Below, piece after piece: positions 20,001 through 38,138 of a stretch of DNA of 64,000 nt. The position numbers were made by a program, and so were the translations under genes. Where the stretch lies: positions 3,100,001 through 3,164,000 of the forward strand of contig NZ_CP129964.1 of assembly GCF_030503675.1 (NCBI RefSeq). The letters run 5' to 3'. Position 1 is the stretch's first letter; the number at the start of each line of letters is the position of its first letter. The DNA is from Lutimonas zeaxanthinifaciens. Its GTDB lineage: Bacteria; Bacteroidota; Bacteroidia; Flavobacteriales; Flavobacteriaceae. The notes beneath the pieces were generated by a model. It was not told the DNA's origin, made no database searches, and saw nothing but the letters and a program-made list of their open reading frames with translations.

Positions 20001-21163
20001 TTTCCAATGCAATAAAATTTACTCCAAAACACGGTAAAATTGTAATTCAGTTGGAAAAGTTGGATTTAAAAGGAGCTCCTTTTTTTCAACTGGATGTTAT
20101 TGATGACGGAATTGGAATGAGCAAAACAGACCTAAATCACATTTTTGATCGATTTTACAAGAGCAAAAATGCCGAGTCAGTAAATGATATTGGGTCCGGA
20201 ATCGGGCTTGCTCTTACTCGTGAATTAGTTTATCTCATGCATGGTAACATTGAAGTAAAGAGTACTTTAAATGTGGGTAGTCAATTTTCCATTCGTCTGC
20301 CTGTAACGAATCAAGCCACAATTGAGAGTATTCTTTTAGATGATATTAAACCTCCGAAAGTATCGAACACCTTACCTATTAACTTTAGCAAGAAAAATAA
20401 GGAAGTCGAAAACAGAACTCCATTAATACTTATCGTTGATGACAATCCAGACGTCCAGTTTTATTTAAACACGTGTTTGTCTGAATATTTTCAACTGATA
20501 TATGCTGAAAATGGGGAGGATGGTTTTAAAATGGCAAGGGATTATATCCCGGATATGGTCATAAGCGATGTCATGATGCCGAAAACAACAGGAATTGAAA
20601 TGTGCAAAAAATTGAAAAATGACTTAAGAACAGATCATATTCCGGTTATCCTGTTAACTGCAAAAGCGCAGGACAAATGGAGAATTAAAGGCCTTTCAAG
20701 CGGTGCGGATTCGTACATAACCAAACCTTTTATCAAAGAAGAGCTATTAATCGTTGTTCAACAGCTTCTTCTGAAGAAAAATAAGATGATTGAGAAATAT
20801 AACAATGATTACGCTTTCCTAATTGACCATAACCGGGCTAAAAAAAACAATTCCAAATTCATCGACAAAGCAATACAGTTGATACAGAAAAACCTGGACA
20901 ATTCAGATTATGGCCCATCTGAACTCGCATCAGATCTCTGTCTCAGCGAATCTCAGGTGTACAGAAAATTGAAAGCCATAACAGATAAACCTACATCAAT
21001 TTTTATACGATCAGTGAGACTCGAAGAGGCTAGAAACCTTCTCGAAAACTCAGATAAATCCATTTCAGAAATTTCTTTTGACACCGGTTTTAATGACCCT
21101 TCCTGGTTCAGCAGAGCTTTTAAAGAAACATATGGCCATAGCCCCAGTGATCACGTAAAATAG
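17066..21163 (+). CDS. Hybrid two-component system regulator (HTCS), one chain
   Basis: This 1365-residue protein has all HTCS parts in order. There is an N-terminal hydrophobic export/anchor segment (about 20-45), then two-component-regulator propeller repeats (for example FLWIGTQEGINRFDG and IWIGTARNGLNIY) to about 690. A Y_Y_Y domain (about 730-800) and a membrane helix (808-838) follow. Next come a HisKA domain with His862 (FTNITHEFKTP), an ATPase domain (SNLISNAIKFT, then GSGIGLAL), a receiver with Asp1168 (VISDVMMP) and an AraC-type DNA-binding domain at the end. Such proteins sense periplasmic oligosaccharides and switch on polysaccharide utilisation genes. No SusC/SusD pair or glycoside hydrolase lies next to it, so its targets are not evident. 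Confidence 0.93.
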   Translation: MVPKLYHTDTNLHPSYHFSLGIHAICFVLFFLLLLFLPFKTHSQKTPFNLLHYGLEDGLSQVTINDMVFDDSGFLWIGTQEGINRFDGKLFKQYKYSKNDTLGLSGNFITKLFKDSEGNIWIGTARNGLNIYRASEKKIRQVILPEYDLTNKTITGIIEGPDSKIWVAFEQGGIIKIDFRESIKFDSEVTLSNSKVLQIYKDPTGRIWVANSDHIHTLHSENEITFPFNNRTMSLHLIDDQLFIGSDNGLFKFNITNREINKIILEKKGETEVSYVSSIIEFDDRSIWTGTGSGLYFYNHKKNKVVNKIHKSNNQHNGLSNGTVQSLLKSNNQLFVGTANGLNMMCFSSAFFKNISMNIKGKHFSTLLNDNVVFSILKDKEKYWVGTSDGGLNLILEDRAYYFQEDIKLPHSIVGGTIRGIAKDSINNKLWFASTRGLSFIDLATFDPENPKFTSLRQNTDDSNSISSNFIRDIAIDKNGVLWAATASDGIFNIRYHSEKKFQIEKFSHDPSDPGSLASNTTYKISIDNANGIWVGTDQGLCYLDDTGKGENNKFWKKFKKEKSNKSIGENVIYDILFDSNGKVWTGSRAGLSVMTDNGNFKSWYRQNQFPNDIIYSVLEDNNKHIWMATNDGLVRFDPEANEFNHFDHKDGIQSIEFNLHSKFKDNLGNLYFGGLKGITYFSPKHIERIDIPQPIYVYEIRIKDSVHEVVGLDQNKSKSSLNSLNFNHNDFPFYLKFGTVDFRVNKNTALAYKLYPLDREWNPIRNEEIQFLNLSPGSYTLLVNGFSRGKQWNAEPVVMNINISPPWWNSWWAYVFYILFTGTLFYMFYWFLFTKKHAINENIRLKELRESRSNLFTNITHEFKTPLMIISGLTQNLKDPLVSESGIKKKNYLEVIDRNTTYLLDLVKDILDLTKLEVKEEKLELKQSEIVSFVKYIFDSFSNMAKEKEIEFLMNDGIDNLIMDFDSEKLTKVISNLISNAIKFTPKHGKIVIQLEKLDLKGAPFFQLDVIDDGIGMSKTDLNHIFDRFYKSKNAESVNDIGSGIGLALTRELVYLMHGNIEVKSTLNVGSQFSIRLPVTNQATIESILLDDIKPPKVSNTLPINFSKKNKEVENRTPLILIVDDNPDVQFYLNTCLSEYFQLIYAENGEDGFKMARDYIPDMVISDVMMPKTTGIEMCKKLKNDLRTDHIPVILLTAKAQDKWRIKGLSSGADSYITKPFIKEELLIVVQQLLLKKNKMIEKYNNDYAFLIDHNRAKKNNSKFIDKAIQLIQKNLDNSDYGPSELASDLCLSESQVYRKLKAITDKPTSIFIRSVRLEEARNLLENSDKSISEISFDTGFNDPSWFSRAFKETYGHSPSDHVK

Positions 21164-23493: not shown

Positions 23494-25755
23494 TCAACTA
23501 TAGTTTAGAGGATTATTTATAAAAGGCTGATGATAATGACGATTTCCGGTTACTCTGTACAAGGCATTCGCGACGGCCCCAAAAACAGGTGGAAAAGTAG
23601 GTTCTCCTAGTCCGGTAGGATCAATATCATTTTTAACAAAATGGACCCTAATTTCCTTAGGGGCTTCGCTCATTCGAATCATTCTATACCTGTCAAAATT
23701 AGATTTATCAGGAACTCCTTCTTTAAAGGTCAACTCCCCATAAAGGGCTATGCCAATTCCGTCAACAATACCGCCTTCACAAAGATTGGAAGCAGCGTCC
23801 GGATTCACCACAATTCCGCAATCAATCGCACAAATTACCTTTTCGATTCGAGGAATCTTATTTTCCAACTTCATATCGACAACCTGAGCTGCATAGGAGT
23901 TATGACAAAAGTAAGCAGACACTCCTCTTTTAAGCGCCGAATCTTCATTCCCCCAGTTTGATTTTTCCTTAACCAGTTCCAATACGCCAGCATAGCGTTC
24001 AGCATCATAATCATTATTTTCACCAACAGGGTTTTTCCTTGCTCTTTCCAATAATTCCAATCGAAATTCGATAGGGTCCTTATCCATTTCTTCTGCAATT
24101 TCATCTAGAAAAGACTGTTCCGCACTTGCCATAAAATTCGAACGTGGCGCCCGAAATGATCCAATGGTAATGTTCGTGTTGATCGTCCAGCTTTCTGCCA
24201 GGTAATTTTCAACGGCACCAGCCGGGAATCTGTTGGCATATAAAGGGCTTTCAGGGATACCACCTGCATTTATATGAATCGCCGTTAACCTGTTGTTTGC
24301 ATCTAAAGCTGCCTTATATTTTACCCGGTACATGGGCCTGTAAATCCCTCCTGTCATGTCATCTTCGCGGGTGTAAATAAGTTTCACAGGTGCCTTCACT
24401 TTCTGAGAAATGACGGCCGCCTCCAAAGCCCAGTGCGCATAAGAACGTCTACCATATCCTCCACCAAGACGCGTTATTTCAATATCTATTTTTTCTACGG
24501 GAATACCCAAACGTTTCGATATCGCAGCTTCAGTGAGTTCTGCTTTTTGAAGTGGACCTGAAAGCTTTGCACTGTCTTCTTTAACATCAGCAAAGAAGTT
24601 CATGGGTTCCATGCAGTTATGGGCCAGAAAAGGTCCCGTATAATCGCGCTCAATCACTTTGGCAGCCTTTTTAAAAGCAACTTCAGGATCACCATCCTTG
24701 CGGATTATATCAGCCTTTTTAGAAGCCTGTTCGATCATCATTCTTCTATGTCCTGATGAACTCTCCAAACCAGCAGGAATATTCAGGGTTCTTTGAGATC
24801 TCCCATAAGGTACCCTTTCCTCTGAATAGCTGTCAAAAGGTTCCCAAACAACATCTAGGGATTTTTTCGCATTCATTACCTCCCAGGTAGAATTGCCCAC
24901 TATTGCCACAACCTCAAGAAAAGCACAGGTATCAAAATGTTGTCTTATATAATCATCTTCAAGAACTTTAATCGCAAATACATCATGAATACCAGGCATC
25001 GACCTAATGCTCGACTCCTCATACGATTTTAATTTCATTCCAAAGGCAGGAGGGTGCACAATCATCGCAATCAACATTCCTTCCAATTGAATATCGCTTC
25101 CAAATAACGGCTTACCCGTTACAATTTTGTGACCGTCCACATTTTTTCTGGAAGTACCTATTATTTTAAAGTCATTAATAGACTTTAAATTGACCTTTTC
25201 AGGAACCGCAAGCTGAGCAGCAGAAGCGGCCAGTTCTCCATAAGTTGCCTTTTTGTTTCCTGATTCGTGATATAACATCCCCGAATTAGTCGTGATTTCC
25301 TCAACAGGTACATTCCAGGCTTGGGCTGCCGCTTCCTTTAGCATCTGTCTTGCTGAAGCCCCAGTCATTCTTAGTCCATTCCAACCCCTACGAATGGCCT
25401 GACTTCCTCCAATAAACTGGCGGGAATACAAATCGGTATTCAGAGGTGCCTGTTGAACGATTACATCAGTCCATTCAATATCGAGTTCTTCAGCAACGAT
25501 CATCGGCATGGAAGTTTTAATGTTCTGTCCTCCTTCCGGGTTAGGAGACACAATGGTTACAAGTCCATTTTCACCAATTTTTAAATAAGCATTGATCTCA
25601 AACCATTCTTTTGGCATTTCCTTGAAAAGTTTGATTTCAGCATCCTTAGGTTTGCAGGAATTCAACCAGCTAAAACCAAGAATCAGGCCACTTCCGGCTA
25701 CACTCGTGTTCTTGATAAAGGCTCGTCTTCCAATTTTTGTTTTCATATGATTCAT
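23494..25755 (-). CDS. Molybdopterin-binding catalytic subunit, xanthine dehydrogenase family (IorB-like), copy 2
   Basis: This protein of about 753 residues belongs to the isoquinoline 1-oxidoreductase beta-subunit-like branch of the molybdenum hydroxylases. The start at 25755 (ATG) aligns with the neighbouring copy; a TTG at 25764 is also possible. It has a twin-arginine signal (IGRRAFIKN) followed by NSCKPKD, where Cys could be a lipidation site. Core motifs are LGGGYGRRSYAHW, NCMEPMNFFA, FRAPRSNFM and the catalytic-Glu region GLGEPTFPPVFGA. Compared with copy 1, the GGGFG motif has Tyr in place of Phe. Such enzymes hydroxylate N-heterocycles or aldehydes in the periplasm, passing electrons through a [2Fe-2S] subunit. 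It is last in the operon, and its substrate is unknown. Confidence 0.85.
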   Translation of the reverse strand: MNHMKTKIGRRAFIKNTSVAGSGLILGFSWLNSCKPKDAEIKLFKEMPKEWFEINAYLKIGENGLVTIVSPNPEGGQNIKTSMPMIVAEELDIEWTDVIVQQAPLNTDLYSRQFIGGSQAIRRGWNGLRMTGASARQMLKEAAAQAWNVPVEEITTNSGMLYHESGNKKATYGELAASAAQLAVPEKVNLKSINDFKIIGTSRKNVDGHKIVTGKPLFGSDIQLEGMLIAMIVHPPAFGMKLKSYEESSIRSMPGIHDVFAIKVLEDDYIRQHFDTCAFLEVVAIVGNSTWEVMNAKKSLDVVWEPFDSYSEERVPYGRSQRTLNIPAGLESSSGHRRMMIEQASKKADIIRKDGDPEVAFKKAAKVIERDYTGPFLAHNCMEPMNFFADVKEDSAKLSGPLQKAELTEAAISKRLGIPVEKIDIEITRLGGGYGRRSYAHWALEAAVISQKVKAPVKLIYTREDDMTGGIYRPMYRVKYKAALDANNRLTAIHINAGGIPESPLYANRFPAGAVENYLAESWTINTNITIGSFRAPRSNFMASAEQSFLDEIAEEMDKDPIEFRLELLERARKNPVGENNDYDAERYAGVLELVKEKSNWGNEDSALKRGVSAYFCHNSYAAQVVDMKLENKIPRIEKVICAIDCGIVVNPDAASNLCEGGIVDGIGIALYGELTFKEGVPDKSNFDRYRMIRMSEAPKEIRVHFVKNDIDPTGLGEPTFPPVFGAVANALYRVTGNRHYHQPFINNPLNYS

Positions 25756-25819
25756 GGCAATCAAATATTTATGAAAATGAACCCAATAGAGGAATTCTCC
25801 CCAAATTCAAATTCAATTC

Positions 25820-28081
25820 CTATCCCATCAAGGTAGATCTATCCGCATTAAACGGTTGATGATAATACCTTTTTCCCGTTGCTTTATATAAGGCATTGGC
25901 CAACGCCCCAAATACAGGAGGAAACGGAGGTTCTCCCAGTCCCGTTGGGTCGATTTCACTTTCAACAAAATAAACCTCTATCTGTTTAGGTGCCTCACTG
26001 CAACGAATGATTCTGTAGTTATCAAAATTAGTCTGCTCCGGTTTTCCATCCTTGAAGGAGATAACCCCGTACATGGCATTACCTATACCATCTACAATAC
26101 CTCCTTCAGCCATATTGGTAGCTGCATCAGGATTTACAACGATACCACAATCAACTGCACAGACCACTTTTTCTACTCTGGGTGAACCATTATCCATTAC
26201 TACATCCACAACATGAGCCGCATAGCTGTTATGACAGAAATAGGCAGAAACTCCTCTATATACATCACTCTCATTTTGGTTCCAATTCGATTTTTCTCTT
26301 ACCAATTTCAATACCCCTGCCAAACGATCCGGGTCATAATCATTTTCTTCTCCAACAGGATTTTCTTTTGCCCGCTGAAGCAACTCCAGGCGAAAATCAA
26401 TGGGGTCCTTTCCTAAAGCTTCCGAGACTTCATCTAAAAAGGACTGTTCCACCCCAGCCATAAAATTAGAACGCGGGGCCCTAAATGCTCCAATAGTGAT
26501 ATTAGAGTTTATTTCCCATTCTTCTGCCAAATAATTATCAATGGCCCCGGCAGGAAAACGATTAGCATACAAAGGAGATTCGGGAACACCCCCTGCCTTT
26601 ACATGAAAACCGATCAGGTTATTCTTATTGTCAAGTGCAGCTCGATAAGTGGCATGATAAGAGGGTCGGTAAATTCCAAAGGTCATATCATCCTCGCGAC
26701 TGTATATCAATTTTACGGGATAACCTGACTGTTTTGAGATTAACGCAGCTTCAATGGCATAATGTCCATAGGCCCTTCTGCCAAATCCGCCACCCATACG
26801 TGTCAGTTCAATCTCTATTTTTTCAACGGGTAATCCTAATCGAGCCGCCACAGAGCCTTCTGTGAGTCCGGGTGCCTGAAGTGGTCCTGCTAATTTGGCT
26901 CCATCCTCTGTTACGTGGGCAAAAAAGTTCATGGGCTCCATACAATTATGTGCCAGAAAAGGACAACTATAGGATCTCTCAATAACTGTTTCTGCATTTT
27001 TAAACACAGCTTCAGGATCACCATCTTGTCGTACCTTTTTAGCTGGTACAGCTGCCATTTCCTTCATCTTCTCATAGTGCGCATTTGTACTTTCCATGCC
27101 ACTGGGTACATTCATCTCTATCTTTGTTCCAAATCTGTCTATATTGAAGCTGTAATCTGCAATAGGCTCCCAATCTGCTATTAACCGCTTTTTGGCGTTC
27201 ATGACCTCCCAGGTTGATTTTCCCACGATAGCTATCAATTCTGTAAACGCATTTGTATCAAAGTAACCTCTCGTAAAATCTTCCTCCAAGGTTTTTATTT
27301 TAAACACATCCACAATTCCTGGCATCTTAAGAATATTCGAACCATCAAAAGACTTTAGTTTCAATCCAAATGCCGGAGGATGAACCACCATGGCAATCAT
27401 TGCATCCTCAAACTGATAATCTACACCAAATAATGGTTGTCCGGTAATAATCTTGTGATTCTCAACATTTTTTTTAGATTTCCCAATGATGGTAAAATCC
27501 TGAATCTCTTTTAATGGAACTTCTTTTGGAACTTCCAACTCTGCAGCCAAAGAAGCCATTTCACCATAACCTGCTGATTTCCCAGAAGCCCTGTGGCTAA
27601 TGATTCCTTTTGAAACGGTTAGTTCCGTAATTGGTACTTGCCAGGAATTAGAAGCAGCTTCTTTCAACATTTGTTTTGCAGTAGCTCCAGCCATACGCAG
27701 CCCCTGCCAACGACGACGAATACCCTGGCTTCCACCCGTAAATTGCCAACCGAAATCTTCCGCATTTAAGTTGGCCTGTTCTACAATGACATCTTCCCAG
27801 TCAATATCAAGTTCGTCAGCAACGATCATTGGCATTGAAGTAATTACCCCCTGTCCAAATTCCGGATTGGGAGAAAATATGGTAACGAGACCGTTATCTC
27901 CAATTTTGAGATAGGCATTGATATCGAACCACTCCTTAGGCATTTCCCTAACATCCATAATCTCGGCATCCCTGGGTTTACAAGAATTTAGAATACTAAA
28001 TCCAAGGACAAGTCCGCCGCTGGCAAGACTCGAATTTCTGATAAATGCACGCCTTCCTATTTTTGTTCTGATATGTTTCAT
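25820..28081 (-). CDS. Molybdopterin-binding catalytic subunit, xanthine dehydrogenase family (IorB-like), copy 1
   Basis: A 753-residue protein very similar to its neighbour along the whole chain. It has the twin-arginine signal (IGRRAFIRN), a possible lipobox (LNSCKPRD), MGGGFGRRAYGHY, NCMEPMNFFA, FRAPRSNFM and GLGEPPFPPVFGA with the catalytic Glu. It lies 13 bp after the [2Fe-2S] subunit gene, so the two form the standard small-large pair, exported together if the iron-sulfur subunit rides on this Tat signal. This copy keeps the usual Phe in the GGGFG motif, so it is the more canonical enzyme. The electron acceptor and maturation (XdhC-like) genes are not in the window. Confidence 0.88.
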   Translation of the reverse strand: MKHIRTKIGRRAFIRNSSLASGGLVLGFSILNSCKPRDAEIMDVREMPKEWFDINAYLKIGDNGLVTIFSPNPEFGQGVITSMPMIVADELDIDWEDVIVEQANLNAEDFGWQFTGGSQGIRRRWQGLRMAGATAKQMLKEAASNSWQVPITELTVSKGIISHRASGKSAGYGEMASLAAELEVPKEVPLKEIQDFTIIGKSKKNVENHKIITGQPLFGVDYQFEDAMIAMVVHPPAFGLKLKSFDGSNILKMPGIVDVFKIKTLEEDFTRGYFDTNAFTELIAIVGKSTWEVMNAKKRLIADWEPIADYSFNIDRFGTKIEMNVPSGMESTNAHYEKMKEMAAVPAKKVRQDGDPEAVFKNAETVIERSYSCPFLAHNCMEPMNFFAHVTEDGAKLAGPLQAPGLTEGSVAARLGLPVEKIEIELTRMGGGFGRRAYGHYAIEAALISKQSGYPVKLIYSREDDMTFGIYRPSYHATYRAALDNKNNLIGFHVKAGGVPESPLYANRFPAGAIDNYLAEEWEINSNITIGAFRAPRSNFMAGVEQSFLDEVSEALGKDPIDFRLELLQRAKENPVGEENDYDPDRLAGVLKLVREKSNWNQNESDVYRGVSAYFCHNSYAAHVVDVVMDNGSPRVEKVVCAVDCGIVVNPDAATNMAEGGIVDGIGNAMYGVISFKDGKPEQTNFDNYRIIRCSEAPKQIEVYFVESEIDPTGLGEPPFPPVFGALANALYKATGKRYYHQPFNADRSTLMG

Positions 28082-28094
28082 CTTGTTTTACTGA

Positions 28095-28553
28095 TCATTG
28101 ATTAGCAGCCGCCATTTTTACAGCCTTCTTTATTCGTGTATAGGTTCCACACCTGCATATATTACCATTCATAGCCATTTCAATTTCAAAATCCGAGGGG
28201 TCTGGATTCTTTTCCAACAGTGCCGCCGCTGTCATGATTTGACCCGTCTGGCAATAACCACACTGCGGTACATCAACCTCCAACCATGCTTTTTGAACCG
28301 GATGATCACCTTTTTCAGAGAGCCCCTCAATTGTTGTGATTTTGGAATTTCCCAAGGTCGAAACTGCTATCATACATGCCCTTACAGCTACCCCGTCAAC
28401 GTGTACTGTACATGATCCGCACTGGGCGACTCCGCATCCGTATTTTGTTCCTACCAGTTTCAAATGATCACGGAGTACCCAAAGCAGTGGTGTATTTGGG
28501 TTTACATCCACTGTACGTGTTTCTCCATTAATGATTAAGTTAAAATTTGCCAT
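28095..28553 (-). CDS. [2Fe-2S] iron-sulfur subunit of molybdenum hydroxylase (IorA-like)
   Basis: A 152-residue protein with the two-cluster fold of the family. The plant-type ferredoxin cluster is held by [12 protein letters not shown] and the following VRAC. The helical-bundle cluster is held by QCGYCQTGQ and NICRCGTY. All eight cysteines are present. Electrons from the molybdopterin centre of the large subunit pass through these clusters. It has no export signal of its own, so it probably hitch-hikes on the Tat signal of a large subunit. One copy serves two adjacent large-subunit genes. Confidence 0.93.
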
Positions 28554-29118: not shown

Positions 29119-29288
29119 TTTTTTATCTTATTTATTTAACTTCCCCAAGTTACGAAAATTTGCAAGGTGCTCATTTCAATGAACTTACCTTTTTTACTGT
29201 TTTACTTACCATAATTACAGATTTCACCCAAACGGTTAGATTTATTTTTCTCCAAAACCTTAACTTTATATCAAAAACAGATCGGGTT

Positions 29289-30200
29289 ATGCAAAATATT
29301 GTGAATATAGAAACGGTTAGTGATTACTTGGACATGCGGAAAATGGAAGTCCTTCATCCTCTTTTAGGTATTGTTGATTTTGATCAAGTACCACTGGAAG
29401 GAAAGACCGGAAACAGGCCTGATGCCATCCATTTTAAATGCTATGCCATATTTTTAAAGGATGCCAAAGGTTGCAAGCTGAAATATGGAGGTAAATCCTA
29501 TGATTATGATGAAGGGACCCTTGTTTTTGTAGGGCCGGGACAAACCATTGAATTAGGTAATTATGATGCGGATTTTATTCCCAAGGGTTACGCTGTATTG
29601 TTTCATCCGGATTTATTGTTAGGTACAGGATTGGGTAAAAAAATACACAATTACAGTTTTTTTTCTTACTCATCCAACGAGGCACTTCACCTCTCAGCCA
29701 AAGAACGAAAAGTGATCTTAAGCCTTATCGATAAAATACAGTTTGAACTTGATCAGAGCCTGGATAAATACAGTAAAAAATTAATGGTATCAAACCTTGA
29801 ACTTTTTCTGGATTATTGTACACGTTTTTATGATCGTCAATTTTTAACAAGAGAGAATGTCCACAAAGGAGCACTGGAGAAATTTGACATATTGTTAAGC
29901 GATTATTTTCTTTCGAACAAAGCTCAAAAAGAAGGCTTACCATCTGTGGGTTATTTTGCCAATCAGTTACATCTCTCTCCCAATTATTTTGGAGATCTCA
30001 TAAAAAAAGAAACAGGGAAAAGTGCCTTAGATTATATACAATCAAAAATTATCGATATGGCCAAAGAGAAAATCTTTGACCCTGATAAATCCATAAGTGA
30101 AATTGCGTATGAACTGGGTTTTAAATATCCACAACATTTTTCCAGACTGTTCAAAAATAAAGTTGGTCACTCTCCTAACCAATACCGAAATTTGAATTAA
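29289..30200 (+). CDS. AraC-family transcriptional regulator
   Basis: A 303-residue protein starting at the ATG at 29289 (MQNIVNIETVSDYLDMR), which fits the usual beginning of this Bacteroidetes subgroup. An in-frame upstream extension to 29160 would be atypical. The N-terminal half is a cupin-like effector domain (KCYAIFLKDAKGCKLKYG, VFVGPGQTIELG). The C-terminal 100 residues form the double helix-turn-helix (FANQLHLSPNYFGDLIKKE, ISEIAYELGFKYPQHFSRLF). It is divergent from the NTF2-like and molybdenum hydroxylase operon with 170 bp between the starts, so it very likely regulates that operon. Confidence 0.85.
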   Translation: MQNIVNIETVSDYLDMRKMEVLHPLLGIVDFDQVPLEGKTGNRPDAIHFKCYAIFLKDAKGCKLKYGGKSYDYDEGTLVFVGPGQTIELGNYDADFIPKGYAVLFHPDLLLGTGLGKKIHNYSFFSYSSNEALHLSAKERKVILSLIDKIQFELDQSLDKYSKKLMVSNLELFLDYCTRFYDRQFLTRENVHKGALEKFDILLSDYFLSNKAQKEGLPSVGYFANQLHLSPNYFGDLIKKETGKSALDYIQSKIIDMAKEKIFDPDKSISEIAYELGFKYPQHFSRLFKNKVGHSPNQYRNLN

Positions 30201-30212
30201 TAAGCGGAAAGT

Positions 30213-33200
30213 TTACTCTTCAATCCATCCCATTATCGTGTTGGCAACGAACCTCGGCTCAGGAGGTAAAGCGTAAATATCCTTTTCATAATTTTTGTTA
30301 TAAGGTGAAATATTCATAACCTCTCCGTCGACGACCAATGTACTGCTGCCGCCAGGATCAAATCCCATGGCTTTATCCATTCCGTATTTTAAAAGAATAT
30401 CAGCCATATCAAAGTGAGTCGCCCCTACAGATTCTCTTATTCTGCCATTTACCATAAGAACCATGAGTTTTCCTTCTCGGGTGATACCCACTGCTATTTT
30501 GGGCCCTCGCATATCTGTGAAATCCAATCTCGCAGCCTGTGTCCTGATTGAATTCGAAGTTTTCCAGCCTTCGTCTTCCATATCCAATACTTGGCTTCCG
30601 CCATCAATTAGCATAGGTCCTGCTTCTATGGCATACAAAATTTCGCTCCACCGAAAAGGATGGTTTTCGGGCTCCATTAGATCCATGTGTAATGCTTTCC
30701 CTTCTTCAAAAAAATCCTCAGAAAAAAGTTTGGAAGGAACAGAAAGGGTCATTCCAACCGGTATCACTTGAACATCTTCGTTTTCTTTAGTCTTTATAAC
30801 CTCCTTTACAATATTGCCGGCTACTCTGATTATTACATTGCCTCTTCCTCGAATCTTTTCCTCAGGATATGACAAATCATAGTAGGAGGGTTCTGCTGTA
30901 GCGTGTTTATTATAGTTTGCTGAAGGAAACACAAGTTCATCGTCCTGACCAATTAACTTAAATCCAGCTTTACTGTTCACCTTTCGAATATCTACTTCGC
31001 CATTTTTATAAATGATAAAAGCCGGCTTATTAAAAAGTGGAGGGCAGAACACCTTATTGTCCATAACAAGAAGGCCCAAGGGAGAACCGATATAAGTTTC
31101 GGGCAAGCCCAGTTTACCCACCAGTTCAGGATTTAAAATATAACCTCCGTTCCAGGCTAATTCTATTTTATGCGGATTATTGTTTTTCTTTTTGTATTCC
31201 CTGACCAGTGCCGGGACATTTTTTGGTTTTTTTTCGGCTATATGAGCCGCAAACTTCCAGTTGTACTCTTTTGTGTCAACTTCGGCAAGAACCCCGCTCC
31301 ATGGCAATCCATCTTTATATACGCCACCTGCGTATGAGGATCTTACCCTTTCGGTCTTGTGGCCTTCTTCTAACCCTTGCTTTAACTGAAACAAAAGCTG
31401 AGCCAAGGGAGTTCCGTTTTCAATCGCATCACTCGTGATTCTCTTCATGAGATCCTTTTCGCCTATCTTGTCTTTTAGTTCCTTGAAGAGGTCGCTCTTC
31501 AGCAGGGTTTCAAAATCTTTGGCCGTTTGAACAGGAGTGGGATAAGCCAGGGTTGTTCGGACCCCCGCTGGCACAAACTGAATAAAGCCACTGTTTTTCG
31601 GTATACCCATGATTTTAGCAGTCATTTCATGTATCACCTTACCAATATGAAAATGATCAATTTCTATGATGTCGGTCATCATGGCAGCGTGCTCACCATT
31701 GGTTATTATAAATCCACCTGATTCTTTGATCTGACGCAAAATCCTTATTGCATTTGCTCCCATCTGAGGAAAATGTACCCCTTCAGACCATTGCTTGGTC
31801 TCAACAATCTGAACCACACCAGTTTTGTACAATAAGCCTAATTCAGGCTCAGTGCCACTCTCTAAGTACTCTCTTATATTCGCACTTGAAAACCACTTGG
31901 TAATTCTGGGTTCATGTATGAAAATATAGACCTTCTCCAGATTCTTGCTTCTCTCCTCCAGAAGGTCCGAAGTCAGTTCCTCCTGAATACTAAGTTTAAG
32001 TTGCGCTCTAATGGGTTGCAAGACGAAATACTCTAACTCGTGTTTGATATAGCGACCGGGAAAATAGCCTTTAGGCACATTATTCTTCAGTTTGCTCGTC
32101 AGCATCTTTCTGTCGTCGATTCCTAAGAAATCACTATTGGTCAGTTGAAACAAAGCCAACTCCCAATCCGCAAAAAACTGAGGTGCCAAAGTGAGGTCGC
32201 TAAGATTTTTTGGCTTAAAGACATCATGGTAAATCATATTGACCAAACCGGTTATTTCCTGAAAGGTAAAAGCCTGATAAGCAAATGATTTTTTATTTCT
32301 ATGTCGATAAGAAAGTGCATGATCATGCCTAATGGATAACTCACCATCAACGTATTTAAAAATATCATCAATGGCATTATAGAAATTATGGATTAGGTCT
32401 AAATCAGTATGAACAAGGTCAGGAATGTCATTCTCCATCATTCTGGCATATGTCATCACCATTCCTTTTGTAAGCTGTTCTTCAACCCTGAAAAAACTGG
32501 GATCAATCAAGGATTTTAAATATAGCATAAATGACAAACGTCCGTATCCCGGTAAATAATGCCTGGTTGATTTATTTAGGATCGCATCCAGATCATCGTT
32601 TGAGAAATTCACGAGCTCCCTGTAAGCTTTGATCAAATGAACGATCCGGGGATCTACCTCCTCCGAAATGGAGTCCAATTGTAAATGAAGCCTTTTTAAT
32701 ATATATACGATATTATTTTCCAGGGACTCAAGGCTAAATCGCTTGTTGATGACATTTCTGTTATGCGTTACGTCAATCATCCTGTTCTGCGGATAAAAGA
32801 CATGGTCGGATATTCTTTCCACCAGGCGCTTTGGAATTTTAGAACCTTTAAACTCGAGTACGTTCAAACGCATTGACTCATCCAAATGACGGCCTATGAC
32901 CTCGTCATATACCTCTCGAGGCTCGTATTGCCGGCAAAAAATAGGTGTACCACAAGCCGCGGCTTCTATGATAGGCAGTCCCCTTCCCTCAGTTTGACTC
33001 GGTAACAGGATCAAGGAAGCTACATCGTATAGCTGCTCAATGTCCAGTGGCTTTTTATACTTTTTTTTGAATTCGTTTTTATCAAACTCACTGAACAAAA
33101 ACCCAAGCAGCACCTTAGATCTGAATTCTTTGGGAAGGTCTTTAAGAAAGTTTTTAAAATCCTTTTTTAGATCCTGATAATAATCCTGCTGGCCATGAGG

Positions 33201-34406
33201 AATGGGCCCCGAAACAATCAATGAAAGCGTTAATTGCGGGTTTGTGATAAACTTCTCACAGAATGAATCATAAGAAAAGAGGCGCTTAATAAGCTTGAAA
33301 TTCAATTCTATGGACTTACGGCTGATAACACGAGTAGGTTGAAGAAAGACTATATTATTGTTGACAAAATCAAATTCCTTTATGGTTTTATAACCGAGCA
33401 AAATCGGTTTTAAGGAGCGTTCACTCTTGGTATGCCTTGCGGCAGTATGTACTGTAATCGTATCTTTTTTATTAGCAAAAATACTGGACACCTGCATAAA
33501 GGCCTTAATGATGTCACGTTTGCTCATCCGGTGCATTTTGGTATCAACTGCAGTTCCTATCAATGCGACGTTTCCCGGATTATGGCCATTGATATCAATC
33601 AGGTGATTCTGCTGAATTTTATTGATATTCACGTTCATCCAGGAACGACTTTCCCAGGGGTAAATCATTTCTATAAGAGAGAAAAATTCGCCAACATGAG
33701 CATTGTGAAAAAAGAAATCTCTGGGCCCCCTTTTTAACCCCTTGCTTTTGATATCAACTTCCCGGTTGCCTCCTTCCCAGTAAAAATCATGATTGTTATT
33801 GATTACCGGAAGGCCAAGATATTCCGAAATCAGGACGGTCGCCAGTGCCAAAGAAACATTGCCCGGGTTGGAGCAGACATTGATCAGATAGAGCAATGAA
33901 ATATTGTTTTCTTCAATATAGCTACCCAAAGCTTCAACCAGGACCAATACTTCCTTCCAAAACTTTCCGATCAATTCATTGTACGCAACACTTCCCCGTT
34001 CCATCTTTATTTTAAAGAAGTCATCGTAAAGTGGCCAGGCGTCAAAAGCTTCCATTTGAGGTATAACTTTTTGAAAAGCATCTTTAGGTATCAACTCATC
34101 CGCCTCCTCCTTAATTTCTCCGGCAATATAATGTACAGGTATTTTTGGATAAATACTTTTAAAAGATTTGGCATACTTTTCAGTTTCAACCGTAATCCCG
34201 TCTATGGTAAAATAAAAGGTTATAAAAGCGATCCCTCCCTTCTTTAGGTAATCGTTAAAAGCTTGAGCATCACCTTCAAAAGATGATTTGAATTTTTTCT
34301 CTTTGAACCGGTCAAGAAAGAGTCCCAGATCAAACCATGTGTTTATTTTTTCCTGATGTAAATCATTTAATACTTTATTAATTTTTGCCTTTTCTTTTTC
34401 TATCAT
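30213..34406 (-). CDS. Glycosyltransferase-like / phosphodiester glycosidase (NAGPA) fusion protein
   Basis: A 1397-residue protein with no signal peptide. Residues 1-575 are GT4-like: a HDFYWEGG block at 206-213 and the nucleotide-sugar signature TEGRGLPIIEAAACGTPIF near 472-490. Residues 580-870 are helical, with no family recognised. Residues 1080-1395 match the phosphodiester glycosidase (NAGPA/DUF2233) family: LAWNGGYI (1083-1090), AIEAGPMLIDGG (1259-1270), KIAVGITREGKLMVLMVNGR and DPGGSSTLVVDG (1350-1361). NAGPA enzymes remove GlcNAc from phosphodiester-linked sugars. It lies 10 bp after a GT4 gene and shares the HDF[YH]WE motif with it. It may build and trim one phospho-sugar product; that is inference. 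Confidence 0.75.
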   Translation of the reverse strand: MIEKEKAKINKVLNDLHQEKINTWFDLGLFLDRFKEKKFKSSFEGDAQAFNDYLKKGGIAFITFYFTIDGITVETEKYAKSFKSIYPKIPVHYIAGEIKEEADELIPKDAFQKVIPQMEAFDAWPLYDDFFKIKMERGSVAYNELIGKFWKEVLVLVEALGSYIEENNISLLYLINVCSNPGNVSLALATVLISEYLGLPVINNNHDFYWEGGNREVDIKSKGLKRGPRDFFFHNAHVGEFFSLIEMIYPWESRSWMNVNINKIQQNHLIDINGHNPGNVALIGTAVDTKMHRMSKRDIIKAFMQVSSIFANKKDTITVHTAARHTKSERSLKPILLGYKTIKEFDFVNNNIVFLQPTRVISRKSIELNFKLIKRLFSYDSFCEKFITNPQLTLSLIVSGPIPHGQQDYYQDLKKDFKNFLKDLPKEFRSKVLLGFLFSEFDKNEFKKKYKKPLDIEQLYDVASLILLPSQTEGRGLPIIEAAACGTPIFCRQYEPREVYDEVIGRHLDESMRLNVLEFKGSKIPKRLVERISDHVFYPQNRMIDVTHNRNVINKRFSLESLENNIVYILKRLHLQLDSISEEVDPRIVHLIKAYRELVNFSNDDLDAILNKSTRHYLPGYGRLSFMLYLKSLIDPSFFRVEEQLTKGMVMTYARMMENDIPDLVHTDLDLIHNFYNAIDDIFKYVDGELSIRHDHALSYRHRNKKSFAYQAFTFQEITGLVNMIYHDVFKPKNLSDLTLAPQFFADWELALFQLTNSDFLGIDDRKMLTSKLKNNVPKGYFPGRYIKHELEYFVLQPIRAQLKLSIQEELTSDLLEERSKNLEKVYIFIHEPRITKWFSSANIREYLESGTEPELGLLYKTGVVQIVETKQWSEGVHFPQMGANAIRILRQIKESGGFIITNGEHAAMMTDIIEIDHFHIGKVIHEMTAKIMGIPKNSGFIQFVPAGVRTTLAYPTPVQTAKDFETLLKSDLFKELKDKIGEKDLMKRITSDAIENGTPLAQLLFQLKQGLEEGHKTERVRSSYAGGVYKDGLPWSGVLAEVDTKEYNWKFAAHIAEKKPKNVPALVREYKKKNNNPHKIELAWNGGYILNPELVGKLGLPETYIGSPLGLLVMDNKVFCPPLFNKPAFIIYKNGEVDIRKVNSKAGFKLIGQDDELVFPSANYNKHATAEPSYYDLSYPEEKIRGRGNVIIRVAGNIVKEVIKTKENEDVQVIPVGMTLSVPSKLFSEDFFEEGKALHMDLMEPENHPFRWSEILYAIEAGPMLIDGGSQVLDMEDEGWKTSNSIRTQAARLDFTDMRGPKIAVGITREGKLMVLMVNGRIRESVGATHFDMADILLKYGMDKAMGFDPGGSSTLVVDGEVMNISPYNKNYEKDIYALPPEPRFVANTIMGWIEE

Positions 34407-34416
34407 TCTTTACTTA

Positions 34417-35661
34417 TTAAAACGTAAACAGCTCATTTAATTTTTGCTCAAGCACCTCATAGGAGAAATACTTTTTACCTACCTTGAAATTGTGTTCACC
34501 TATTTCTCTGCAGCGGACAGGATCATAAATGATCTCAGCCATTTGACGGACTTTTTCATCGGATAAAATACTGTCTTCGATCATAACCGTATCAAAACCT
34601 TTGTTACCAATGTCCTGCATATAAACAGGCTTATAATTGTTGACAAATATGGGCTTTTTGGCAAGGACAGATTCGACAAAAGCATTTCCAAAACCCTCAT
34701 AAGTACTGAAATACGTGCACGCTCTTCCATGGGCATAAACGTCCGACAAATCCTTGTGATCCAGAACCTTATGAGCCGCAAAAATGATCTGCCTTGACAG
34801 ATTCAGCTCATGGATCTGGTCAATCAACTCATTGTAATACTCCTTGTTCTCATCATCATTATTATTTCCGGTTATGACTAATTTCAACTTCTTGTCATTG
34901 AGTTGGTCAATTAAGGATATTGCTGTTTCAATAGCTTTACGTCGAACAATACGTGTGACTTGCAGTAAAGCTATTTCATCCTCTTTTACGCCGACATCGC
35001 GCAGGAAAAACTGATTCTCAGGGGTTGGAACCCCATAAATGCGATTAAAATCCATTACATTGGGTACCAGAAGGGCATCAATGTCAAACCTCTTTCTAAA
35101 TGTTTCCACTCCAAATGTGTTGATCACGGCATGTTTCACATCGGGCAGCAATAGCGGAAAGTTGTCATCTACATATCGGTTTATTTCTCCATGAACAGAC
35201 AAATAACGCTCTCCGCGTTCCCAATGAAAATCATGATCATGCGTCACTATGGGCAAGCCGGTAGTTTTTATGAGCTTCTTTATGGCTACACCCATGGATA
35301 ACTGGCAGGGAAGAGCTGAGGCGTTTTCCGAGAGAATAACTTCAATTTTTTTGTTCCTGACCCATTTCAAAAGGTTTCTTTCAATCATGTCTGACCAATT
35401 CTCTACATGATCCAGTAAGGGATCAGGATCACTGTCCGGTTCAAAAAATGCCTTACGTTGTTCCCATTCCGCTTCAGCAGAAAAAAATGACAAGGCTGGA
35501 AACAAGGTATGATGCTCGTAATCCATTTCCCATGATTCAAATTCACCTGAAATAATAAATACCTCATGACCCAATTTTTTCAAGATGTCGATCCATTTTT
35601 CCGTTTCTAATGCGACACCATCCACACCTCCAATTCTTCCTATTATAATTCCAATTCTCAT
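34417..35661 (-). CDS. GT4-family glycosyltransferase
   Basis: A 414-residue cytoplasmic protein with the two-Rossmann (GT-B) plan. It has an N-terminal GIIIGRIGGVDGVALET loop, VTHDHDFHWERG at 139-150, and the GT4 signature EGFGNAFVESVLAKKPIFV at 322-340 with the two conserved Glu. The HDHDF-W-E element resembles, from memory, enzymes making glucosyl- or mannosyl-glycerate type solutes, but I cannot confirm this. It is first in a two-gene operon with the large fusion protein, 10 bp upstream of it. The acceptor is unknown. Confidence 0.85.
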   Translation of the reverse strand: MRIGIIIGRIGGVDGVALETEKWIDILKKLGHEVFIISGEFESWEMDYEHHTLFPALSFFSAEAEWEQRKAFFEPDSDPDPLLDHVENWSDMIERNLLKWVRNKKIEVILSENASALPCQLSMGVAIKKLIKTTGLPIVTHDHDFHWERGERYLSVHGEINRYVDDNFPLLLPDVKHAVINTFGVETFRKRFDIDALLVPNVMDFNRIYGVPTPENQFFLRDVGVKEDEIALLQVTRIVRRKAIETAISLIDQLNDKKLKLVITGNNNDDENKEYYNELIDQIHELNLSRQIIFAAHKVLDHKDLSDVYAHGRACTYFSTYEGFGNAFVESVLAKKPIFVNNYKPVYMQDIGNKGFDTVMIEDSILSDEKVRQMAEIIYDPVRCREIGEHNFKVGKKYFSYEVLEQKLNELFTF

Positions 35662-35900: not shown

Positions 35901-38138
35901 TCAAATACCCGACCAGGTCGCCTTAAGTTCCCCTTTTGCCGCTTCAACATCTACTACGATTCCTGTCAAATGTGCCATACCGGATATCGTATCCAGTTTT
36001 TCGGGCCCGTCAGCTGCAAGTATATTCACGTTGACGCCCTTGGTCTTGTTTGCATGTTGAAGGCCTATGGCGTGTTGATGCCCCCAGCCATGAGGTACAG
36101 CAATTGTTTTGGGCATTAGTGTAGGTAAACTTTTCACGGCAATCCGTATAGCAGCTGTTTCAGAGCGAACATCGATCATATCCAGCTCCTTTATATTAAG
36201 CTCTTTTAGGTCAGACGGATGTAAATACGCATAATTTGTATTCCTTCCTTTTGCTGTCATTCGCTCAATGTTATGGGTCCAGCTGTTATGGGTTGTGACC
36301 GCACGTTTGGTAATCAATTTAAAGCGGTGTAAATCTGCCTTTTCTCTCTCAAAGTCTTCCTTAAGCTTCCGCGCCTGATTCAACAAGGGATCCGGTGCCA
36401 AATCCACCTTCTTGTCAGCTGTCAATACTCTATCCGGGACAAAACTTCCCGGAACATGTTGCTTTCTTATCGTTCCGTTTTTACTCTTTTGAATTTTCCT
36501 GAAAGACGATTGTCCTGTTAGGCGTAAAAGTCCGTTGAGCATAGCCTCCTGTGGTAAAGATGGCAGGTCCTTTTTACTTTTCCAGGAGTAATATTTTTGG
36601 ATACCTGTAAAAAAAGACTGAGCCATTTTTGAGCCAAACAAAGGCATTCCGCATGCCCTTGCCAGATTCAGATAAATGGAACTCTCGTCCATTTGCTCTC
36701 CTTCAGGTTCTATCACCGCTTTGGTGGCTTCCAGATAAGGCTTTTGCTGAAGGCCGAGCATAAGCGGAAAAATAAACGGAAGGTCAGGACGCTGCAAGGG
36801 ATCCGTACATGGCAAAACATAATGGGCCTCTGAACTTGTCTCGTTTTGGTAGATATCAAGAGCCACCAAAAGTTCCAAATGCTGAAAGGCCGATTTTAAT
36901 TTTTCAGAATTGGGCATGGTAATCAAAGGATTCCCTCCCGTTACAAAAAGAGCCTTCAACTGCCCTTTCCCTGGTGTAAGAATTTCATCCGCCATTAAGC
37001 CTCCAGGAAAAGCATCATTTACAGAAACCATACCTCCTATCCTCGATTTATCCTCACGCATCAGAATACCTTTTTTAACACCAAACTTTAAGAAATCCAT
37101 GACGCCTTTTCCTACCAGGGTTCCTCCTTTTTTATCCAGATTTCCGGAAATGGCATTAATAACTTCCTGCAACCAGTAAGCCAGAGAACCGTTACCACCC
37201 ATGTTCACTCCCGTAGAACAGTACAGGGCCGACCCATCCGACTCGATATAATCCTGAACCATCTTTTTGAGAGCTTTTGCCCTTATTCCTGTTAGCTCCT
37301 CCGTCGTCTCAGCAGGCCAATCCTTTACCAGGTCAGTGATGGCATCAACCCCTTTTGTATGATTCCGAATAAACTGTTGGTCCAAGCCATTTTGTTTAAT
37401 CAGTTCGTGGAGAAAAGACAAGTAGAAAAATACATCTGTTGAAGGTCGGATAAACATATGTTCTCCGGCAATCTTTGCAGTCTCAGTTTTTCTTGGGTCT
37501 ACAATATATAGTTTAGCTCCTCTTCTTTCAAGGTTTTTCAGTTTTTTGCCTGGATTGGGCACCTGTAAAAAAGACCACTTTGATACCACCGGATTCGCTC
37601 CGACGATAATAAGACAATTAATGTTATCAAGGTCAGGAAATGGCAGGGTAAACGGAAACCCATAGATCAATTTTGAAACGGCAAATTTATTGGAACAGTC
37701 CTGAGTTGATGAACTATACATACTCTTAGAACCTACTCCGGTCATAAACCCCTGGGCGAAAACCGGATGCAATACACTAAATCCTGCAGCAGTACCCACG
37801 TACATTCCAATAGAATCGGCTCCGTCATCCTTGTGCAATTGTTTTACCTTATCACCTATTTCCTTTAGGGCCTGCGGCCAGGAAATTCGAATATAGGAAC
37901 CGTCACTCTCTCTCTTTAGGGGGTATTTTAACCGATCCGGAGACTGGTACATTTCATGCTGATAAAGTCCTTTTACACAAGAAAATCCTTCGGTAGCCAC
38001 ATGATTCTCATTAGGCTTTACACCAATAACCTTATTATTCCGGGTCTTTATCTCCAAACCGCACAAAGACTCACATATACGACAAAAGGTATGATGTGTT
38101 CTTATTTCTTCTTGTTCTGATGAAGTATCTGGTTTCAA
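35901..38138 (-). CDS. Molybdopterin-dependent oxidoreductase, formate dehydrogenase/nitrate reductase superfamily
   Basis: A 745-residue member of the DMSO-reductase/FdhF superfamily. The N-terminal [4Fe-4S] motif CRICESLC is followed by the fourth Cys in GFSCVKG. The molybdopterin domain has SSSTQDCSNKFAVS, where the Cys lies at the usual metal-ligand position, and IIVGANPV and IVDPRKTETA. The C-terminal MGD-binding domain ends in VPHGWGHQHA. There is no Tat signal, so it is predicted to be cytoplasmic. It has no obvious iron-sulfur or membrane partner beside it. The start is TTG at 38138: a stop lies five codons upstream in frame and no ATG precedes the cluster motif. It diverges from the Usp gene; a CRP/FNR-like box lies between them. 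Confidence 0.85.
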   Translation of the reverse strand: MKPDTSSEQEEIRTHHTFCRICESLCGLEIKTRNNKVIGVKPNENHVATEGFSCVKGLYQHEMYQSPDRLKYPLKRESDGSYIRISWPQALKEIGDKVKQLHKDDGADSIGMYVGTAAGFSVLHPVFAQGFMTGVGSKSMYSSSTQDCSNKFAVSKLIYGFPFTLPFPDLDNINCLIIVGANPVVSKWSFLQVPNPGKKLKNLERRGAKLYIVDPRKTETAKIAGEHMFIRPSTDVFFYLSFLHELIKQNGLDQQFIRNHTKGVDAITDLVKDWPAETTEELTGIRAKALKKMVQDYIESDGSALYCSTGVNMGGNGSLAYWLQEVINAISGNLDKKGGTLVGKGVMDFLKFGVKKGILMREDKSRIGGMVSVNDAFPGGLMADEILTPGKGQLKALFVTGGNPLITMPNSEKLKSAFQHLELLVALDIYQNETSSEAHYVLPCTDPLQRPDLPFIFPLMLGLQQKPYLEATKAVIEPEGEQMDESSIYLNLARACGMPLFGSKMAQSFFTGIQKYYSWKSKKDLPSLPQEAMLNGLLRLTGQSSFRKIQKSKNGTIRKQHVPGSFVPDRVLTADKKVDLAPDPLLNQARKLKEDFEREKADLHRFKLITKRAVTTHNSWTHNIERMTAKGRNTNYAYLHPSDLKELNIKELDMIDVRSETAAIRIAVKSLPTLMPKTIAVPHGWGHQHAIGLQHANKTKGVNVNILAADGPEKLDTISGMAHLTGIVVDVEAAKGELKATWSGI

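What the first reader, a model, noticed from the sequence alone, without database searches (positions are those of the whole stretch)
30213..34406. 1397-residue fusion of a glycosyltransferase-like half and a phosphodiester glycosidase half
The N-terminal 575 residues look GT4-like, and the C-terminal 315 match the NAGPA/DUF2233 family, which cuts sugar phosphodiesters. Joining a sugar-adding and a sugar-removing domain in one chain without an export signal is unusual, because NAGPA-type domains normally work outside the cytoplasm. It could make a sugar-phosphodiester intermediate and uncover it, or edit wrong products.
Basis: partly seen in the sequence, partly recalled or inferred. Interest (0 to 1): 0.7.

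Follow-up and report, generated by a model that had tools for sequence, protein, structure and literature searches.

The report
Three-domain sugar enzyme with partner
A large bacterial enzyme joins a sugar-adding domain, a previously undescribed middle domain and a sugar-phosphate-cutting domain in one chain, and it nearly always comes with a second sugar-adding enzyme, which points to an uncharacterised pathway making some sugar compound, in bacteria many of which live in the sea.

Summary
The fusion is real, but it has three domains rather than two halves. It is one 1397-aa minus-strand ORF (34406..30213). Residues 1-575 form a GT-B/GT4 domain with an intact EX7E motif. Residues ~576-1074 form a conserved domain that no Pfam model matches; its predicted fold resembles DUF89/ARMT1 phosphatases but lacks their sequence motifs. 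Residues 1075-1397 form a NAGPA/DUF2233 domain with family-wide changes (RTAIG to KIAVG, LDGGGS to FDPGGS). No signal peptide is evident, so it is probably cytoplasmic.

It is not a local oddity. A species-level scan gave 118 relatives; of the 80 kept, 69 have full-length ORFs, 9 are contig-cut and 2 interrupted. It has a near-obligate partner, the GT4 gene 10 bp upstream. Among 397 Flavobacteriaceae genomes the fusion and the partner each occur in 8, the same 8. Of 12 searched genomes without the partner in the fetched locus, 10 hold it elsewhere.

Best reading: a two-gene cytoplasmic module that builds a small glycoside, with the NAGPA domain acting on a glycosyl-phosphate bond. Substrates are unknown. 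The known mannosylglucosylglycerate route is not supported: the partner scores far below that family's cut-off, and no GpgS reached its cut-off in the window genome or 59 relatives.

The parts
30213..34406 (-). Three-domain fusion gene, 1397 aa (P0001)
32682..34406 (-). GT-B/GT4 glycosyltransferase domain, residues 1-575
   Evidence: Pfam; predicted structure of residues 1-660, pLDDT 81.7, and Foldseek to GT4 structures
32964..32990 (-). EX7E motif of retaining GT4 enzymes, E473-E481
   Evidence: both Glu in 73 of 73 aligned rows; motif name recalled
31185..32681 (-). Undescribed middle domain, residues ~576-1074, with a DUF89/ARMT1-like predicted fold (about residues 590-1010, placement inferred)
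   Evidence: apart from NAGPA no Pfam family is matched by more than 2 of 48 members of A2 at E <= 1; Foldseek 2g8l E 4.8e-7; no profile match
32475..32513 (-). Conserved block SLIDPSFFRVEEQ of the middle domain, residues 632-644 (D635, R640, E642 in 73 of 73 rows)
32292..32330 (-). Conserved block RHDHxxxYRHRNK of the middle domain, residues 693-705 (D695, Y700, R701, R703 in 73 of 73 rows)
   Evidence: low pLDDT at 695-702 in the model
31527..31574 (-). Conserved block xPAGxRxxxxYPTPxQ of the middle domain, residues 945-960
30216..31184 (-). NAGPA/DUF2233 domain, residues 1075-1397
   Evidence: Pfam PF09992 67.7 bits; Foldseek to NAGPA structures
30498..30500 (-). Lys1303, at the place of the Arg of the RTAIG motif of solved NAGPA structures
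   Evidence: K in 73 of 73 rows; alignments with 5h3k, 6u11, 6pku, 6pky, 6pki
30339..30362 (-). FDPGGSST, residues 1349-1356, at the place of LDGGGSAT
34417..35661 (-). Partner GT4 glycosyltransferase, 414 aa (P0002), 10 bp upstream of the fusion on the same strand
   Evidence: Pfam 58.6 bits; NF041101 209.9 bits against a cut-off of 640; co-occurrence

Best explanation
The fusion and its partner form a cytoplasmic two-enzyme module that assembles a small glycoside. Shown by sequence and model: a GT4 domain with its conserved catalytic motif, a middle domain with a DUF89-like predicted fold, a NAGPA domain, and a near-obligate second GT4 enzyme. Inferred: the two GT4 enzymes add two sugars in turn from nucleotide sugars. 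The middle domain binds or processes a phosphorylated sugar with a site different from that of DUF89 phosphatases. The NAGPA domain cuts (or transfers from) an alpha-glycosyl-phosphate bond in the same pathway, either in a phosphodiester intermediate or in a nucleotide sugar. The product may be a solute-type glycoside, because the partner's nearest named family makes the osmolyte mannosylglucosylglycerate and the named host genera are marine to my knowledge; this last step is the weakest.
For: Domain identity and folds. E473, E481, R359 and K364 of the GT domain are the same in 73 of 73 rows. The NAGPA part is the most conserved third of the chain (mean column identity 66% over 23 rows, against 57% and 58% over 24 rows). 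In 397 Flavobacteriaceae genomes, the window's included, the fusion (E <= 1e-100) and the partner (E <= 1e-40) each occur in 8, the same 8. Of 80 loci, 49 have the partner directly upstream on the same strand, 15 have it downstream on the other strand and 16 have none in the fetched locus; of those 16, 12 could be searched and 10 have a partner elsewhere at E <= 1e-40. Distances of the partner correlate with those of all three domains (r 0.86-0.93 over 39 of 48 representatives, 0 of 2000 permutations as high). The best NCBIfam match of both GTs is mannosylglucosylglycerate synthase. No hydrophobic N-terminus. UCE, the animal NAGPA enzyme, hydrolyses UDP-GlcNAc (passages of PMC12024695). In one Calditrichota-group locus a true DUF89 gene lies beside a related two-GT pair.
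Against: No activity, substrate or product is known. The DUF89 sequence motifs are absent from the middle domain. The NAGPA domain has changed residues at conserved motif positions, so it could have lost or changed its activity. No GpgS (recalled as the acceptor maker of the known osmolyte route) reached the family cut-off in the window genome or 59 relatives, 8 of these 60 carrying the fusion. Two of 12 searched genomes show no partner (incomplete bins are possible). Neighbouring genes give no pathway, and the DUF89 neighbour was seen in 1 of 6 loci only. The distance correlation has no housekeeping-gene control.
Confidence: 0.4

Rival explanations
1. The pair is the known mannosylglucosylglycerate (MGG) osmolyte pathway in another guise: the partner is an MGG synthase and the fusion makes or dephosphorylates its acceptor.
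For: NF041101 is the best named match of the partner (209.9 bits) and of the fusion (44.4 bits). MGG occurs in the marine planctomycete Rhodopirellula baltica (abstract start and passages of PMC3694870).
Against: Both scores are far below the family cut-off of 640 bits. A GpgS above its cut-off was found in 0 of 60 genomes, the window genome included, 8 of which carry the fusion. The known route, as recalled, needs no NAGPA domain.
Confidence: 0.12
2. The NAGPA domain is an editing or drain activity: it hydrolyses wrong products or excess nucleotide sugar of the GT domain.
For: UCE hydrolyses UDP-GlcNAc to UDP and GlcNAc (passages of PMC12024695). The domain is on the same chain as the GT domain in all 69 full-length ORFs.
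Against: No known GT needs such a domain (recalled). The middle domain and the partner enzyme are not explained.
Confidence: 0.18
3. The NAGPA domain is a transglycosidase: it passes a sugar from a glycosyl phosphodiester or nucleotide sugar to a sugar acceptor, so the module makes three glycosidic bonds.
For: Family-wide changes at motif positions (R to K, LDGGG to FDPGG) with very high conservation fit a changed rather than a lost function.
Against: No NAGPA-family transglycosidase is known to me (recalled); no structural evidence of an acceptor site.
Confidence: 0.12
4. The pair makes a cytoplasmic step of a surface or storage glycan or glycolipid rather than a free solute.
For: GT4 enzymes often do this (recalled); HepE is the top fold match and is a polysaccharide GT (recalled).
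Against: None of the 15 shared neighbour families that I read by eye looks like a flippase, polymerase or other glycan-assembly gene; unshared neighbours were not systematically annotated. In the Flavobacteriaceae loci the unit stands as a two-gene pair among changing neighbours.
Confidence: 0.13
5. The pair is a defence or mobile-element cargo system.
For: Patchy distribution and changing neighbourhoods; a weak match to GT4-conflict (19.4 bits, cut-off 26).
Against: No PADLOC match for either protein at E <= 0.01; no protein-level match of the fusion in 72,556 plasmid records; no DNA-level match in 50,697 phage records (less sensitive); housekeeping-like neighbours in Bacteroidales.
Confidence: 0.05

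Closest known systems
NAGPA / DUF2233 (PF09992), mannose-6-phosphate uncovering enzyme and bacterial relatives (5h3k, 3ohg, 6pku)
   Same: Fold, Asp and GGS of the glycine loop, overall Pfam match
   Different: No export signal; RTAIG to KIAVG and LDGGGS to FDPGGS throughout; joined to GT4 and an undescribed domain
NAGPA domains in multi-enzyme chains with a prok-TelC (lipocone) domain and extracellular binding domains (passage of PMC12419801)
   Same: NAGPA as one of two enzymes on a chain
   Different: There the setting is described under toxins with extracellular ligand-binding domains; here a GT4 partner domain and no export signal
GT4 glycosyltransferases (HepE, MshA, BshA, sucrose-phosphate synthase)
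   Same: GT-B fold, EX7E, conserved R/K pair
   Different: 10-14% identity to the top 50 structures; carries two further domains
DUF89 / ARMT1-like phosphatases (PF01937; 2g8l, 1xfi)
   Same: Predicted fold of the middle part (Foldseek E 4.8e-7)
   Different: No sequence match; DN, ND/SD and KG.xNY motifs absent from the family alignment
Mannosylglucosylglycerate synthase (NF041101)
   Same: Best named NCBIfam match of the partner and, weakly, of the fused GT
   Different: Far below the curated cut-off

Membership tests
GT4 glycosyltransferase (N-terminal domain) | GT-B fold | tested here: met
   AlphaFold2 model and Foldseek
GT4 glycosyltransferase (N-terminal domain) | EX7E motif and basic donor-phosphate residues (recalled) | tested here: met
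   E473, E481, R359, K364 in 73 of 73 rows
GT4 glycosyltransferase (N-terminal domain) | Sugar transfer from a nucleotide sugar | not testable with these tools
   needs an assay
NAGPA / DUF2233 | Pfam score above cut-off and NAGPA fold | tested here: met
   67.7 bits against 25; NAGPA matched in 48 of 48 A2 members at E <= 1, best 4e-21; Foldseek
NAGPA / DUF2233 | Arg of the RTA(I/V)G or RSAI motif seen in solved structures | tested here: not met
   Lys in 73 of 73 rows, against Arg in the 5 structures aligned
NAGPA / DUF2233 | DGGGS loop | tested here: inconclusive
   Asp and GGS kept, first Gly replaced by Pro, in 72 of 72 rows with letters there
NAGPA / DUF2233 | Work outside the cytoplasm (signal peptide or N-terminal anchor; recalled as usual, not universal) | tested here: not met
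   no hydrophobic N-terminus in 73 of 73 rows
DUF89 / ARMT1-like phosphatase (middle domain) | Fold | tested here: met
   13 DUF89-type chains with E <= 0.001; predicted model only, aligned range not printed
DUF89 / ARMT1-like phosphatase (middle domain) | PF01937 profile match | tested here: not met
   0 of 48 A2 members at E <= 1; window genome 0; hhalign probabilities 2.9 and 0.3%
DUF89 / ARMT1-like phosphatase (middle domain) | DN and ND/SD metal-site motifs (role recalled; motifs visible in the sequences) | tested here: not met
   absent from A3; residue correspondence judged by eye, coordinates not available
Mannosylglucosylglycerate synthase NF041101 (partner) | Score above curated cut-off 640 | tested here: not met
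   209.9 bits
Anti-phage defence (PADLOC) | Match to a defence model | tested here: not met
   0 families for each of 2 proteins at E <= 0.01

The most novel reading that the evidence does not exclude
A previously undescribed biosynthetic pathway, in bacteria many of which are marine. One 1400-residue chain carries three active sites (a GT4, a new enzyme built on a DUF89-like fold, and a cytoplasmic NAGPA-type enzyme acting on glycosyl phosphodiesters or nucleotide sugars). Together with a dedicated second GT4 it makes a new phosphodiester-derived glycoside.
Probability: 0.3. Interest if true: 0.72.

Novelty: new variant of a known kind. Interest (0 to 1): 0.52.

Why it matters
It would place a NAGPA-type phosphodiester glycosidase inside a cytoplasmic biosynthetic enzyme, add a roughly 470-residue domain that the Pfam copy searched here does not hold, and define a two-gene pathway whose product could be found by gene deletion and metabolite analysis.

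Tried and rejected
Chance or assembly artefact: rejected. 69 of the 80 kept loci (of 118 relatives) have the full-length ORF.

Membership of the middle domain in DUF89 by sequence: profile comparison with two DUF89 alignments failed, and a PDB profile search at E <= 10 gave nothing. The two alignments hold 5 and 4 of the 11 loci looked at. L104 was left out because the ORF picked there was wrong, and L108 as a near-copy of L107. The profiles are therefore thin. The fold relation stands on Foldseek alone.

Known MGG osmolyte route: model NF010496 (accession and function, GpgS, recalled; the tool names it PRK13915.1) reached its cut-off in 0 of 60 genomes; 42 of 60 had weaker matches of the general glycosyltransferase kind.

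Gene-neighbour inference: the conserved Bacteroidales neighbours look generic and were named by eye from their sequences (HemW-like, RpiB-like, RuvB-like, quinolinate-synthase-like, PheS-like). They give no pathway.

Different-architecture homologues of the middle domain: none found. Hits were 1 of 395 genomes of the window's phylum (the window genome itself), 7 of 40 of the phylum of L087 (labelled Calditrichota) and 1 of 199 of the phylum of L082 (labelled Planctomycetota). Shorter ORFs in three or four of the seven (1148, 1156, 922, 513 aa) are probably contig-cut; I judged this only from match positions near contig ends.

Papers: searches (listings of titles and abstract starts) showed nothing that describes this fusion. 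Passages were read in PMC12024695, PMC9862828, PMC12419801 and PMC3694870; a search inside PMC11009771 found none of its terms. Das 2013 and Gorelik 2020 were not held, so the catalytic residues of NAGPA could not be checked.

Tree: two rows (L137, L138) were the wrong ORFs. One search repeats the tree with the right L137 and without L138. It uses 15 fused GTs and 15 partners, a hand-picked subset.
Full report
WHAT IS THERE. The reported ORF is real and lies on the minus strand: ATG at 34406, stop at 30213-30215, 1397 aa. The gene directly upstream (35661..34417, minus, 414 aa) ends 10 bp before it. Pfam finds Glycos_transf_1 at residues 450-495 (29.5 bits, cut-off 26.4) and NAGPA at 1226-1372 (67.7 bits, cut-off 25), and nothing above a cut-off between them. 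The window genome shows one NAGPA match, this one. The nearest named relative is in Lutimonas saemankumensis, 97% identical.

THREE DOMAINS. I aligned 48 non-redundant homologues (chosen from 73 rows: the window plus 72 ORFs over 1300 aa) and predicted two overlapping parts. Residues 1-660 (pLDDT 81.7) match GT-B/GT4 structures: HepE 4xsu E 4.5e-13, with MshA, BshA and sucrose-phosphate synthase among the top 50. Residues 560-1397 (pLDDT 85.0) match NAGPA structures (5h3k E 4.8e-22; 6pkg 1.1e-13; 3ohg 8.8e-12) and also DUF89/ARMT1-type structures (2g8l E 4.8e-7, target-normalised TM 0.58-0.62; 1xfi, 2ffj and others: 13 of the 28 chains with E <= 0.001). As the NAGPA matches explain the end of the chain, the DUF89-like part is the middle, about residues 590-1010; the tool does not print aligned ranges, so this placement is my inference from the order of secondary structure.

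THE MIDDLE DOMAIN IS NEW AS A FAMILY. No Pfam family apart from NAGPA is matched by more than 2 of 48 members at E <= 1. A PDB profile search gives nothing at E <= 10. Comparison with DUF89 profiles built here from 5 and 4 sequences gives probabilities of 2.9% and 0.3%; these profiles are thin. The DUF89 motifs visible in those sequences (DN, ND/SD and KG.xNY) have no counterpart that I could see in A3. The domain has its own invariant polar residues instead: D635, R640, E642, D695, R701, R703, E717, D912, R950 and D1032 are the same in 73 of 73 rows, and H696, H920 and D993 in 72 of 73. That is what an active enzyme with a site different from DUF89 could look like, but it is also compatible with a binding domain. 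I did not find it outside the fusion: hits were 1 of 395 genomes of the window's phylum (the window itself), 7 of 40 of the phylum of L087, 1 of 199 of the phylum of L082, and one copy in each of 10 genomes of known loci. Three or four of the seven in the phylum of L087 have shorter ORFs, probably contig-cut.

CATALYTIC FEATURES. GT domain: E473 and E481 (EX7E, motif recalled) and R359/K364 are the same in 73 of 73 rows. NAGPA domain: it is the most conserved third (mean column identity 66%, 23 rows, against 57% and 58%, 24 rows each). In the 5 structures aligned the Arg of RTAIG (RSAI in 5h3k) stands where all 73 rows have Lys1303. The loop LDGGGSAT reads FDPGGSST. The position before LA/MA/FA, which is Glu in 4 of those 5 structures and Gln in zebrafish, is Asp in 70 of 73 rows. 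Whether these positions are catalytic could not be checked, because the two primary papers were not held. No row of 73 has a hydrophobic N-terminus; 68 of 73 have some internal 19-residue window of hydropathy 1.6 or more. In the window protein it lies at residues 184-202, inside the predicted GT fold, and is not taken as a membrane span; its place in the other rows was not checked.

DISTRIBUTION AND PARTNER. A scan of one genome per GTDB species gave 118 stretches that encode relatives; 80 were kept. By record titles these are Bacteroidota (most), Chlorobiota, Calditrichota, Planctomycetota, Gammaproteobacteria and Desulfobacterales, with a few unlabelled bins; many are metagenome bins, so the labels are not certain. 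The named genera (Lutimonas, Winogradskyella, Flavivirga, Marinifilum, Polaribacter, Maribacter and others) are marine to my knowledge (recalled). The gene is rare: 8 of 397 Flavobacteriaceae. Of the 80 loci, 49 have the partner GT upstream on the same strand (38 of them with a gap of 31 bp or less, one overlapping), 15 have it downstream on the opposite strand, and 16 have none in the fetched locus (matches of at least 140 bits). Thirteen of those 16 were put to a genome search; one was not held; 10 of the 12 searched have a partner elsewhere at E <= 1e-40 (one of them a 129-residue match, E 3.8e-41), and two show only the fusion's own GT domain. In 397 Flavobacteriaceae genomes, the window's included, 8 have the fusion (E <= 1e-100) and 8 have the partner (E <= 1e-40), and they are the same 8. 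Partner and fusion co-diverge: r = 0.93, 0.89 and 0.86 with the GT, middle and NAGPA domains over the 39 of 48 representatives with a usable partner ORF, none of 2000 permutations as high. I had no housekeeping gene as a control, so part of this is shared ancestry. In a tree of 15 fused GTs and 15 partners each set is one side of a branch, so the pairing looks old.

FUNCTION. The best NCBIfam match of both GTs is mannosylglucosylglycerate synthase NF041101: partner 209.9 bits, fusion 44.4 bits, cut-off 640. MGG is an osmolyte of the marine planctomycete Rhodopirellula baltica (abstract start and passages of PMC3694870). But a GpgS model (recalled as such) gives nothing above cut-off in 60 genomes, the window genome included, 8 of which carry the fusion, so the known route is not supported. 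The uncovering enzyme hydrolyses UDP-GlcNAc to UDP and GlcNAc (passages of PMC12024695), so a cytoplasmic NAGPA domain would have nucleotide sugars or glycosyl phosphodiesters as plausible substrates. One locus of the Calditrichota group (L164) has a true DUF89 gene (PF01937, 209.7 bits) 366 bp upstream of a tandem pair of related GTs. This echoes the fusion's GT plus DUF89-like combination but was seen in 1 of 6 such loci, the other five judged by eye only. My best reading is a two-enzyme cytoplasmic module that builds a small glycoside through phosphorylated intermediates. Architecture and pairing are shown; the chemistry is inferred.

VERDICT. It is a new combination of two known enzyme families with one undescribed domain, in an old and near-obligate two-gene unit. 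Function is open but directly testable.

Noticed in passing
L162-L167 (e.g. L164:2343-4847): Other genomes of the phylum of L087 (labelled Calditrichota) carry a tandem pair of MGG-synthase-like glycosyltransferases without the fusion; six complete pairs score 231-258 and 78-90 bits to NF041101. In L164 a PF01937 (ARMT1/DUF89) gene lies 366 bp upstream on the same strand.
   Followed up: partly
L095:332-2990: Two tandem copies of the partner glycosyltransferase precede the fusion.
   Followed up: no
L096:10599-14791 and L101:11212-15380: The fusion ORF is interrupted in these two records (two ORFs each); sequencing error or decay was not distinguished.
   Followed up: no
window 23494-28553: Two MoCoBD-type molybdopterin-binding subunits and a [2Fe-2S] subunit on the minus strand (xanthine-dehydrogenase-like set), near an AraC-type regulator at 29160-30200; a separate Molybdopterin/Fe4S4 oxidoreductase at 35901-38138 lies on the other side of the glycosyltransferase pair.
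   Followed up: partly
window 17066-21163: 1365-aa protein with histidine kinase and response-regulator parts (hybrid sensor kinase).
   Followed up: no
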